A program made the position numbers and the translations under genes. From contig NZ_JAFVMF010000002.1 in the NCBI RefSeq assembly GCF_017377715.1, positions 186,001 to 250,000 on the forward strand: 64,000 nt of DNA. Reading direction: 5' to 3'. The notes below the pieces were generated by a model, which saw only the letters and a program-made list of their open reading frames with translations, made no database searches and was not told the origin of the DNA. This stretch comes from Acetobacter sacchari. Its GTDB lineage: Bacteria > Pseudomonadota > Alphaproteobacteria > Acetobacterales > Acetobacteraceae. Every line of letters starts with the position of its first letter. The stretch's first letter is position 1. Shown one piece after another: positions 42,216-44,565 of the stretch.

Positions 42216-43349
42216 TCAACGCTTGAAACCCGGAGGAACGAACGGCATGGCCGCAACCGTCACAGGCGTTCGGCGCCCGCGCAATTCGGCGAAAATCGCC
42301 GAACCCGTCTGCGCATACGGCGTGGCCACATATCCCATGGCCACTGGAGCCTGAAGAGTCGGACCAAAAGCGCCTGACGTCACAACGCCGATCGGCTCTC
42401 CGCCCTCGACCTCAGCGAACAGCGGCGCGCCGCCCCTGATCGGGGCGCGGCCCTCGACCAGAAGCCCGACCCTGCGGCGCGGCGCGCCTTCGGCGAACTG
42501 CCGCTGGATGACGTCGCTGCCGGGAAAACCGCCTGCACGGCCGCCGTCCGCACGACGGATTTTCTGGATCGCCCACTCAAGAGCCCCTTCAACGGGCGTC
42601 GTGGTCTCGTCGAGGTCTGATCCGTACAGGCACAAACCCGACTCCAGGCGCAGACTATCGCGCGCGCCAAGGCCGATCGGCGCGACCTCCGGCTGCTTCA
42701 GCAGCGCGCGAGCCACCCGCTCTACATCCGCGTCATTGACGCTGATCTCGAAGCCATCTTCGCCGGTGTAACCCGAACGCGACACGATCACGTCCAGACC
42801 GTCGAAATCGGTCTGGATCACGTCCATGAACTTCATATCCGCAACAGCGGGCGCGAAACGGGCCAGAGCCTGTTCCGCCTCCGGTCCCTGCAGGGCGATC
42901 AGCGCACGGCGGTCCATCGGCTCGACCTCGCAGGTCGGCGACAGGACGGACTGGAACAGCGCAGTGTCCGCAGCCTTGCAGGCGGCGTTCACCACGATCA
43001 GGAACCGGTCGCCCAGATTGGCGATCATCAGATCGTCGAGAATTCCACCCTTGTCGTTCGTCAGGAACCCATAGCGCTGCCGCCCCGGCTTCAGACCGAC
43101 GACGTCGACGGGCACGATCGTCTCGATCGCGCGGGCCGCCGACGCCATGTCGCCGTCAAGCGGGCGAACCGAGACCTGCCCCATATGGGACACATCGAAC
43201 AGTCCGGCTTTGGCGCGGGTGTGAAGATGCTCGGCCATGATGCCGGCCGGGTATTGCAGCGGCATCGCATAACCCGCGAAGGGCACGATACGCGCTCCAA
43301 GTTCCTTGTGCAGCGCGAGGAGCGGCGTCTCCAGCATCGCCTCGCTCAT
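42216..43349 (-). CDS. gcvT: Aminomethyltransferase, glycine cleavage T protein
   Basis: 377 aa. Transfers the methylene group from aminomethyl-GcvH to tetrahydrofolate and releases ammonia. Seen: LHKELGARIVPFAGYAMPLQYPAGIMAEH, GLFDVSHMGQV, SRSGYTGEDGFEISV and LGARDSLRLESGLCLYGSDLDETTTPVE. The ATG at 43349 lacks its own strong ribosome binding site and overlaps by four bases the end of an 18-codon leader ORF that has one. An ATG four codons later is another possible start. First gene of the operon, downstream of a tandem glycine riboswitch. Confidence 0.96.
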   Translation of the reverse strand: MSEAMLETPLLALHKELGARIVPFAGYAMPLQYPAGIMAEHLHTRAKAGLFDVSHMGQVSVRPLDGDMASAARAIETIVPVDVVGLKPGRQRYGFLTNDKGGILDDLMIANLGDRFLIVVNAACKAADTALFQSVLSPTCEVEPMDRRALIALQGPEAEQALARFAPAVADMKFMDVIQTDFDGLDVIVSRSGYTGEDGFEISVNDADVERVARALLKQPEVAPIGLGARDSLRLESGLCLYGSDLDETTTPVEGALEWAIQKIRRADGGRAGGFPGSDVIQRQFAEGAPRRRVGLLVEGRAPIRGGAPLFAEVEGGEPIGVVTSGAFGPTLQAPVAMGYVATPYAQTGSAIFAELRGRRTPVTVAAMPFVPPGFKR

Positions 43350-43402
43350 GACGAGAGCCGACAGAGGACGAGGAACGGGAACGCAGGCGTAAAAGAAAAC
43401 AT
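43346..43402 (-). CDS. 18-codon leader ORF coupled to gcvT
   Basis: ATG 43402 is preceded by GGGAGG at seven bases, the best ribosome binding site in the leader. It encodes MFSFTPAFPFLVLCRLSS, a hydrophobic peptide, and ends TGA, overlapping the gcvT ATG as ATGA. The reading frame differs from gcvT. It may couple gcvT translation to ribosome loading after the riboswitch. No homologue is known to me. Confidence 0.55.
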   Translation of the reverse strand: MFSFTPAFPFLVLCRLSS

Positions 43403-43417
43403 CGGCACACCTCCCGA

Positions 43418-43435
43418 ACCCGGCGTGAGCCGGGT
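43418..43435 (-). promoter_or_regulatory. Hairpin next to the leader ribosome binding site
   Basis: ACCCGGC and GCCGGGT form a 7-bp stem with a 4-nt loop directly upstream of the GGGAGG site. It is a likely part of the riboswitch expression platform. Confidence 0.5.
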
Positions 43436-43448
43436 CAGTTATGCGCCC

Positions 43449-43603
43449 CTTCTGTCCGTTTGCCTGAGATCGCTATCCCGTCGGCGGACGCGTGCCGCGT
43501 CACTCTCCAGAAGTCAGTGTCATAGGGTCCGTTAGCCTGAGAGATTCCGGGGCGGTTGCTCCTTCGGCGTCGGGCCTTGCAGCCCGAACTCTCCCTCTAT
43601 GAC
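43449..43603 (-). promoter_or_regulatory. Tandem glycine riboswitch
   Basis: Two glycine aptamers on the minus strand. Aptamer 1 spans 43603-43519: outer stem GTCATAG/CTATGAC, then GGGAGAG, CCGAAGGAGCAA and TCTCAGGCTAACGGAC. Aptamer 2 spans 43513-43449: outer stem CTTCTG/CAGAAG, then GGAGAG and TCTCAGGCAAACGGACAGAA. Only five bases separate them. Glycine binding is expected to turn on gcvT-gcvH-gcvP. Confidence 0.95.
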
Positions 43604-43692
43604 GCCGCAGATGTCGCATTCGACCATTGCGAAGTCAAACGAAATCGACGCATCCGAACGCCCTGCGCGACACACGTCGCACAGGGGCGCCA

Positions 43693-44565
43693 TCAGTCGT
43701 TCGAAGCCGGCAAATTCGCCGCAATATACGGCGGCAGGTTGAACGACCCGACATGGATCTCGGGCGTCCAGTACTGCGTCTTACCCAGAAGCCCGGCCTC
43801 GCGCGCACGTTCCCGCACGACCCCGACATCCTGCCTCGCCGGGTTGCCGCCCTTCGAAGCGACGCCAAGCGTCATGAACCCGCCGACATAGGTCGGGACC
43901 GCAGCGACATACGCCGACACGGTTGAAAAAAAACGCGCGCGGCGCAGGCTGGTCTCGCGCAGTTCGTCAGCCTGCATGAACGGCACGCCACACTGGTTAA
44001 CGATCAGACCCTGTGGCCCGAGGATCCGCGCGCAGTGCTGATAGAACGCATCGGTGAACAGCACCTCGCCCACGCCGATCGGGTCGGTGCTGTCGACGAT
44101 GATCACATCGAACGACTCATCCGCAGCTTTCGCCACATACTCGATTCCGTCGCCAACGATGACATCGGCGCGCGGATCGTTCCACGCAGCGCCCGCGATC
44201 TTCGGAAGATATGTTTTGGAAAGTTCGATGACGTCTCCGTCGATCTCGACCATAACAGCCTTCTCGACGCCTGGATGCTCCAGAACCCGACGCAGCACGC
44301 CGCCGTCGCCAGCCCCGATGATCAGCACGCGCTTCGCAGCGCCGTGCGTCAGCAGCGGCACGTGGGTCAGCATCTCCTGATAAACGAACTCGTCCCGTTC
44401 TGTAATCTGAATGGCGCCGTCCAGCACCAGAACCCGACCGTGCGACTCACTTTCGAAAATTACTATATCCTGAAAGTCGCTTTTCTTGCGGACCAATTCC
44501 CGATCAACCCGGAACCTTTGTCCCCACGCCGAGTACAGCTCTTCATTCAGCCATTCGGTCGACAT
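43693..44565 (-). CDS. speE: Spermidine synthase
   Basis: 290 aa. Transfers the aminopropyl group from decarboxylated SAM to putrescine. Start MSTEWLNEELYSAWGQRF; ligand motif RVLIIGAGDGGVLRRVLEHPGVEKAVMVEID, catalytic Asp in VIIVDSTDPIG, and GVPFMQADELRE. ATG 44565 has GGGGAT upstream. It lies directly after an intrinsic terminator that separates it from speD. Confidence 0.96.
   Translation of the reverse strand: MSTEWLNEELYSAWGQRFRVDRELVRKKSDFQDIVIFESESHGRVLVLDGAIQITERDEFVYQEMLTHVPLLTHGAAKRVLIIGAGDGGVLRRVLEHPGVEKAVMVEIDGDVIELSKTYLPKIAGAAWNDPRADVIVGDGIEYVAKAADESFDVIIVDSTDPIGVGEVLFTDAFYQHCARILGPQGLIVNQCGVPFMQADELRETSLRRARFFSTVSAYVAAVPTYVGGFMTLGVASKGGNPARQDVGVVRERAREAGLLGKTQYWTPEIHVGSFNLPPYIAANLPASND

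What the first reader, a model, noticed from the sequence alone, without database searches (positions are those of the whole stretch)
43346..43449. Coupled 18-codon leader ORF between glycine riboswitch and gcvT
The best ribosome binding site (GGGAGG) in the leader serves ATG 43402, encoding MFSFTPAFPFLVLCRLSS and ending in an ATGA overlap with gcvT, which has no good site of its own. A 7-bp hairpin abuts that site. The riboswitch may act by controlling leader-ORF translation, with gcvT coupled to it. I know of no described case of this arrangement.
Basis: partly seen in the sequence, partly recalled or inferred. Interest (0 to 1): 0.6.

Follow-up and report, generated by a model that had tools for sequence, protein, structure and literature searches.

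The report
Riboswitch-gated relay ORF before gcvT
A glycine-sensing RNA switch in this bacterium seems to control a tiny throw-away reading frame whose translation is then handed on to the glycine-breakdown gene gcvT, and related genera keep the hand-over while letting the tiny peptide's sequence drift.

Summary
On the minus strand a tandem glycine riboswitch is followed by GGGAGG (43415-43410), ATG 43402, an 18-codon ORF and an ATGA overlap with gcvT, whose own Shine-Dalgarno (SD) match is negligible. Alone this could be chance (0.34 in shuffles). Comparison argues against chance: in four clades from four genera (43 of 43 leaders, two starts set by hand) an SD-bearing ORF of 14-62 codons ends at the A/GTGA junction. 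Its length changed at least 13 times without breaking frame; the spacer upstream changed 14 times with 13 frame breaks (p 7e-7). The peptide drifts (pN/pS 0.6-1.1). The aptamer's 3' flank is more complementary to the leader-ORF start than to gcvT's in 42 of 43. In 19 of 20 outgroup genera a candidate gcvT start lies near where the leader ORF starts here. Best reading: the riboswitch gates a relay ORF, and gcvT is reached by termination-reinitiation. Translation, glycine dependence and ON direction are inferred; folding energies do not show a strong switch, and 23 of 43 have a fair gcvT SD. The claim of no precedent is wrong: the M. tuberculosis ppe2 B12 riboswitch works this way. New variant of a known kind.

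The parts
43515..43607 (-). glycine riboswitch aptamer 1
   Evidence: Rfam RF00504, 59.2 bits, E 1.1e-9
43449..43513 (-). second, shorter aptamer of the tandem
   Evidence: Tandem model RF03166 covers 43448-43610 at E 1.5e-13, below its gathering score; P1 CUUCUG/CAGAAG formed in the MFE fold
43441..43455 (-). 3' strand of aptamer-2 P1 and its flank (ACAGAAGGGGCGCAT), proposed partner of the leader-ORF start region
   Evidence: MFE pairing of the local segment with the SD-to-start spacer and codons 2-3 in the window; complementarity to the uORF start beats that to the gcvT start in 42 of 43 leaders
43418..43435 (-). 7-bp hairpin just upstream of the SD
   Evidence: Direct from sequence; by eye a hairpin is also predicted there in most of the leaders folded
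43410..43415 (-). Shine-Dalgarno GGGAGG of the leader ORF
   Evidence: Duplex energy -11.3, the strongest of the starts scanned
43346..43402 (-). 18-codon leader (relay) ORF, MFSFTPAFPFLVLCRLSS, stop included
   Evidence: frame conserved in relatives
43346..43349 (-). ATGA start-stop overlap
   Evidence: Sequence; ATGA 41, GTGA 2 of 43
42216..43349 (-). gcvT, aminomethyltransferase
   Evidence: Pfam PF01571 and PF08669
41793..42185 (-). gcvH, next gene on the same strand
   Evidence: Pfam PF01597; listed start (MFQNRNEEACM) probably upstream of the true one (inference)

Best explanation
A tandem glycine riboswitch controls ribosome access to the start of a short leader ORF instead of the start of gcvT. 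Without glycine, the 3' strand of aptamer-2 P1 and its flank pair with the leader ORF's SD-to-start region; glycine binding holds that strand in P1 and favours ribosome entry. Ribosomes that translate the leader ORF stop inside the ATGA junction and reinitiate on gcvT, which has almost no SD of its own in this species. The peptide is mostly a disposable relay: selection keeps the start codon, the open frame and the junction far more than the amino acids. Shown by sequence and comparison: anatomy, conservation of frame and junction, weak or absent peptide constraint, excess complementarity of the flank to the leader-ORF start. Inferred: translation of the ORF, reinitiation, glycine dependence and ON direction.
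For: (1) 43 of 43 leaders of four clades (window clade 13, g42 13, g117 13, g130 4) carry an ORF of 14-62 codons ending in A/GTGA with gcvT; start codon ATG 40, GTG 3; SD -6.2 to -11.3 in all 43. A rule that picks the start by SD and ATG alone, blind to the stop, finds this ORF in 36 of 37 and 5 of 6 later ones; L128 and L265 were set by hand. (2) Length changes after the start: 13, none frame-breaking; before it: 14, of which 13 frame-breaking; Fisher p 7.5e-7. With L139, L150 and the single-genus cases (41 rows, before the six later loci were added): 20 changes with 1 frame change, against 18 with 15. (3) Six loci fetched after the pattern was seen: 6 of 6 have the junction ORF from the ATG at +36 to +38. 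(4) pN/pS of the ORF 0.64-1.11 against 0.06-0.18 for the first 50 gcvT codons. (5) Aptamer flank complementary to the uORF start (mean z -1.5 to -2.4 in the four clades), hardly to the gcvT start (mean z -0.7 to +0.5); uORF better in 42 of 43. (6) In 19 of 20 resolved outgroup loci, one per genus, a candidate gcvT start with SD -5.7 or better lies 40-56 nt after the aptamer, near the place of the uORF start here (36-44 nt in the four clades); 2 of 20 have an overlapping ORF, with SDs of only -1.7 to -2.2. (7) An experimentally shown analogue exists (PMC11260477).
Against: No expression data. Opening the leader-ORF start region costs 13.1 kcal/mol with the P1 strand free and 12.0 with it held in the aptamer: a gain of only 1.1 in the window, and -2.0 to +4.5 over 22 species. 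The MFE fold of the whole leader keeps both P1 and a 7-bp stem over the spacer, so a simple P1 competition is not demonstrated. Complementarity for single sequences is often not significant against dinucleotide shuffles (window 0.11); g10 shows none, gcvT starts in 13 direct-output leaders are weak (mean z -0.97) and 10 of 20 outgroups show little. RNAalifold finds only one pair with compensatory change in the window clade. In 23 of 43 leaders (6 of the window clade, all g42, all g130) gcvT has an SD of -5.8 or better, so coupling need not be obligatory there. Some peptide constraint is not excluded: pN/pS is 0.64-0.74 in g42, g117 and g130, and the g117 second half and the g130 C-terminus look alike within the genus. 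20 of 47 leaders of the own genus lack such an ORF by the automatic rule and 10 more end 8 nt inside gcvT, where the frame is uninformative.
Confidence: 0.72

Rival explanations
1. Standby model: the SD near the riboswitch only loads ribosomes, which then initiate at gcvT 53 nt downstream without translating the leader ORF, as reported for the SAM-II riboswitch of metA in the alphaproteobacterium Sinorhizobium meliloti.
For: PMC9373788 (abstract and passages): the SD in the riboswitch is required, AUG1 is not used, translation starts 74 nt downstream at AUG2. gcvT here lacks its own SD.
Against: It does not predict that 13 of 13 length changes preserve frame, that the start stays ATG/GTG in 43 of 43, or that ORFs of up to 62 codons stay open.
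Confidence: 0.1
2. The leader ORF is translated and coupled to gcvT, but the riboswitch acts on something else (Rho-dependent termination, RNA stability, or gcvT directly); the ORF is a constitutive coupling device.
For: Small calculated gating energies. Rho-dependent control at a riboswitch-uORF leader is reported for the M. tuberculosis Mbox (PMC12810186, passages).
Against: The aptamer flank is more complementary to the leader-ORF start region than to the gcvT start in 42 of 43. No intrinsic-terminator-like site was found between the aptamer and gcvT; Rho sites were not tested.
Confidence: 0.15
3. Chance ORF: gcvT is translated independently from ATG 43349 or 43337.
For: The overlap arises in 0.34 of shuffles for this sequence alone, and the peptide is little conserved.
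Against: Frame and junction conservation across four clades and six later loci; no usable SD at 43349 or 43337.
Confidence: 0.03

Closest known systems
ppe2 B12 riboswitch and uPPE2 uORF, Mycobacterium tuberculosis (PMC11260477, NAR 2024; abstract and passages seen)
   Same: Riboswitch, then an SD-bearing uORF, an AUGA overlap and a main gene without SD; main-gene expression needs uORF translation; termination-reinitiation supported by experiment there
   Different: B12 class and an OFF switch in an actinobacterium. Here: glycine tandem aptamer, gcvT, presumed ON switch, conserved over several genera with the peptide mostly free to drift and length 14-62 codons
Mbox riboswitch and uORF2 of pe20, M. 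tuberculosis (PMC12810186, RNA 2026; passages seen)
   Same: A translational riboswitch directly controls a small upstream ORF
   Different: There the peptide itself is conserved, and the words overlap and reinitiation do not occur in the main text; here the junction is conserved rather than the peptide
SAM-II riboswitch of metA, Sinorhizobium meliloti (PMC9373788; abstract and passages seen)
   Same: Alphaproteobacterial riboswitch whose SD drives a start codon tens of nt downstream
   Different: There AUG1 is in frame with the gene and is not used; here the first start opens a separate frame that is conserved
Tandem glycine riboswitch of the gcvT operon, Bacillus subtilis (PMC5666159; passages seen)
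   Same: Tandem glycine aptamers upstream of gcvT; glycine turns expression on
   Different: Intrinsic terminator platform; no relay ORF in the passages seen
ATGA/TGATG overlapping gene pairs with termination-reinitiation (PMC6728339; abstract and passages seen)
   Same: The coupling junction
   Different: Those are ordinary gene pairs; here the upstream partner is a short, little-conserved ORF under a riboswitch

Membership tests
Glycine riboswitch (tandem) | Aptamer 1 matches RF00504 above the curated score | tested here: met
   59.2 bits against 32
Glycine riboswitch (tandem) | Second aptamer directly downstream | tested here: inconclusive
   Only aptamer 1 passes the gathering score; tandem model RF03166 spans both at E 1.5e-13 but 65.5 against a cut-off of 110; one search counts two RF00504 matches in this genome, the place of the second is not listed
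Glycine riboswitch (tandem) | Glycine binding changes gene expression | not testable with these tools
   Needs probing or reporters
Riboswitch-controlled uORF with start-stop coupling (ppe2 type) | SD-bearing uORF between aptamer and gene, overlapping AUGA | tested here: met
   43 of 43 clade leaders
Riboswitch-controlled uORF with start-stop coupling (ppe2 type) | Main gene lacks its own SD | tested here: met
   -1.7 in the window; but 23 of 43 leaders have -5.8 or better
Riboswitch-controlled uORF with start-stop coupling (ppe2 type) | Main-gene expression depends on uORF translation | not testable with these tools
   Only indirect: frame conservation
Riboswitch-controlled uORF with start-stop coupling (ppe2 type) | Ligand alters access to the uORF start | tested here: inconclusive
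   Complementarity supports it; computed gating energy is small
Peptide-dependent attenuator or leader peptide | Conserved peptide sequence under purifying selection | tested here: not met
   pN/pS 0.88-1.11 in the three groups of the own genus and 0.64-0.74 in g42, g117, g130, against 0.06-0.18 for gcvT

The most novel reading that the evidence does not exclude
A glycine riboswitch whose target has moved from gcvT to a nearly sequence-independent relay ORF: in one bacterial family the start that the aptamer gates was detached from gcvT and turned into a translated spacer of 14-62 codons, kept under selection mainly for start, frame and start-stop junction, so that gene control passes through termination-reinitiation. 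None of the rows shown by the seven paper searches made here describes this for the glycine class or outside mycobacteria.
Probability: 0.6. Interest if true: 0.66.

Novelty: new variant of a known kind. Interest (0 to 1): 0.56.

Why it matters
It turns a single odd leader into a conserved class of riboswitch output. A switch can govern a disposable ORF and pass control on by reinitiation, and one family appears to hold both direct and relayed output of the same aptamer, alive today for comparison. It also warns that a start codon predicted right behind a riboswitch may belong to a relay ORF rather than to the annotated gene, and that peptide conservation is the wrong test for such ORFs: frame and junction are what is kept.

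Tried and rejected
Peptide function: rejected as the main role, because pN/pS is 0.64-1.11 and by eye the peptides of different genera look unrelated (no comparison program was run). Intrinsic-terminator platform in the window: the scan found no terminator-like site between aptamer and gcvT. Internal gcvT start ATG 43337: SD -1.9, and the codon is ATT in L154. A search of named genomes with gcvT returned 80 loci, none above 64% identity; I made no further use of them, so organism names are not given, and 'acetic acid bacteria' would be recall or inference only. The MAFFT alignment of the flank-start stem was not in structural register, so RNAalifold was weak and I used per-sequence duplex tests instead. 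L244 (g111) carries a 10-codon ORF with ATGA, but of 20 loci fetched of 26 genomes in that genus gcvT was recognised in 7 and only this one (again as L269) has the overlap, so I do not count g111. Ten own-genus leaders whose ORF ends 8 nt inside gcvT were set aside because gcvT there offers stops in both other frames. The zero stops in the leader frame follow in part from how the ORF was defined and are not used as evidence. Start codons were set by hand for L128 (GTG) and L244 and for six later loci; the blind rule agrees in 5 of those 6, not for L265. The outgroup gcvT starts were chosen by hand from the candidates.

Full report
What is there. On the minus strand, about 85 nt after the end of speE (Spermine_synth), lies a tandem glycine riboswitch (aptamer 1 43607-43515, 59.2 bits; tandem model over 43610-43448, E 1.5e-13 but under its cut-off). 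After aptamer 2 come a 7-bp hairpin (43435-43418), GGGAGG (43415-43410), ATG 43402, 18 codons, and ATGA 43349-43346, in which the leader stop and the gcvT start overlap. The leader SD scores -11.3 kcal/mol, gcvT -1.7 and the internal ATG 43337 -1.9.

Is it chance? Given the start codon, shuffles with random frame produce a stop at the overlap in 0.34 of cases for the window, so this sequence alone decides nothing. I therefore looked at relatives. The genus holds 49 genomes. A riboswitch search of 147 relatives found matches in 115. A pattern for the aptamer-2 end in 397 genomes drawn from the family matched in 64 genomes of 14 genera. In all, 88 gcvT leaders were examined. Left out of that set were L157, L254-L257 and L260, where the riboswitch precedes another gene, L190 (a second copy of L161), and the family outgroups, treated apart.

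Distribution (unless said). In the window's own genus, 47 leaders: 15 end exactly at the ATGA/GTGA junction (13 of them form the clade with the window, SH-aLRT 99; L128 counted by a GTG start set by hand; L113 and L129 by TTG starts), 2 end within 5 nt of it (L139, L150), 10 end 8 nt inside gcvT, 20 have nothing of the kind by the automatic rule. In g42 13 of 13, in g117 9 of 9 and in g130 2 of 2 end at the junction, with ORFs of 22-31, 46-50 and 61-62 codons; the one g10 genome has a 15-codon case. The other 4 g117 and 2 g130 genomes with the pattern were fetched afterwards as a test: 6 of 6 have the junction ORF; the blind start rule picks it in 5 of 6. Fourteen leaders (g142 nine; g9, g23, g26, g37, g136 one each) have no leader ORF; in 13 of them gcvT starts 35-42 nt after the aptamer, and in L221 the start is unclear. 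The two rows left are L171 (g14, an uncoupled short ORF) and L244 (g111). Among family outgroups 20 of 26 could be resolved, one per genus; 19 have a candidate gcvT start with SD -5.7 or better 40-56 nt after the aptamer (L170 does not), several have more than one candidate, and 2 (L168, L170) have an overlapping ORF with a weak SD. So in related genera gcvT most likely starts about where the leader ORF starts here.

Frame test. For the four clades in which every sampled leader was kept (43 sequences), I counted length changes on a gcvT tree (quick method, minimum changes). After the leader start: 13 changes, 0 break the frame. Between aptamer and start: 14 changes, 13 break frame (Fisher p 7.5e-7). 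The start is ATG in 40 and GTG in 3; the gcvT start is ATGA in 41 and GTGA in 2. The leader SD is -6.2 to -11.3 in all 43. A wider set of 41 rows with L139, L150, L167 and L244, made before the six later loci were added, gave 20 changes with 1 frame change against 18 with 15. As a contrast, 14 of the 20 own-genus leaders without the ORF show 7 length changes, 4 of them frame-breaking.

Not mainly the peptide. pN/pS of the leader ORF is 1.05, 1.11, 0.88, 0.74, 0.71 and 0.64 in six groups, against 0.06-0.18 for the first 50 codons of gcvT in the same species. Values below 0.75 in g42, g117 and g130, and like-looking C-terminal parts within g117 and g130, leave room for weak constraint. On the whole the ORF is kept as a translated path rather than for its product.

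What the riboswitch gates. Local folds of 25 leaders chosen for display pair the 3' strand of aptamer-2 P1 or its flank with the leader start region, and in 33 leaders the expected number of such pairs is 7.6-12.9. The flank is more complementary to the leader-ORF start than composition-matched shuffles (mean z -2.36, -1.48, -2.07, -1.76 in the four clades) but hardly to the gcvT start (-0.69, 0.51, -0.16, 0.24); the leader start is better in 42 of 43, and in 44 of 46 with g10, L139 and L150. In seven outgroups the same flank is complementary to gcvT's own GUG start (GGCCAC with GUGGCC), with a matching double change in L184 (GGUCAC with GUGACC); z is -1.67 or lower in 10 of 20 outgroups and weak or absent in the other 10. 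The 13 direct-output leaders are weak (mean z -0.97) and g10 shows nothing. Against a simple switch: freeing the leader start region costs 13.1 or 12.0 kcal/mol in the window depending on the P1 strand, and the gain over 22 species ranges from -2.0 to +4.5; the MFE fold keeps P1 and a 7-bp stem together. Gating is therefore likely but not shown, and the ON direction rests on the known behaviour of glycine riboswitches (B. subtilis, PMC5666159, passages).

How tight is the coupling? In 20 of 43 leaders, the window among them, gcvT has an SD no better than -3.9, which leaves reinitiation as the natural route; in the other 23 (6 of the window clade, all g42, all g130) it has -5.8 or better, so there the gene may also be started directly or the SD may help reinitiation.

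Known or new. Seven paper searches were made; several matched hundreds of papers or more and showed only 12-20 rows, so they test absence weakly. They found the arrangement itself for another class: the B12 riboswitch of M. tuberculosis ppe2 controls a uORF with an AUGA overlap, and ppe2 needs its translation (PMC11260477). A second mycobacterial case controls a conserved peptide (PMC12810186). A SAM-II case in S. meliloti offers the standby rival (PMC9373788). A comparative study of glycine aptamers does not use the phrase open reading frame in its main text (PMC6944388). No row shown described a glycine riboswitch with a relay ORF. The finding is a new variant: another riboswitch class, another bacterial group, wide conservation, and selection mainly on frame and junction.

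Verdict.

Noticed in passing
L114, L116, L118-L121, L125, L133 (own genus): A sister group has no coupled leader ORF. gcvT has its own SD (GUAAGGCGGCGUGCAUG), and a GC-rich stretch with a short T run (GCTCCGTGTTTTTG in most) follows the aptamer, as if the platform had changed towards termination.
   Followed up: partly
L270, L276, L278, L281, L284 (genus g111): Leader start looks decayed: L270 has an ATG followed by TTT and a stop; the others read ACG at that place, and gcvT follows without an evident SD.
   Followed up: no
L171 (genus g14): A 15-codon ORF with an SD begins 30 nt after the aptamer but ends 76 nt before gcvT: an uncoupled leader ORF or a decayed relay.
   Followed up: no
L254-L257, L260 (genera g113, g128): The same kind of riboswitch precedes genes that look like glyA or serine dehydratase rather than gcvT (read from translations, no family search).
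   Followed up: no
L163, L180: The riboswitch precedes a gene for an FAD-dependent, D-amino-acid-dehydrogenase-like protein (read from the translation only).
   Followed up: no
L157 (second riboswitch place of genome G031): A glycine riboswitch precedes a small membrane protein gene of UPF0126 or TRIC look (read from the translation only).
   Followed up: no
L231-L243 (genus g42): gcvT has an SD of its own inside the leader ORF (-6.0 to -10.5), yet the leader frame is kept in 13 of 13; the role of two SDs is unexplained.
   Followed up: partly
window 43607-43693: No sigma-70-like promoter was found around the riboswitch (43300-43800), so the gcv leader may be read through from speD-speE or use another promoter type.
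   Followed up: no
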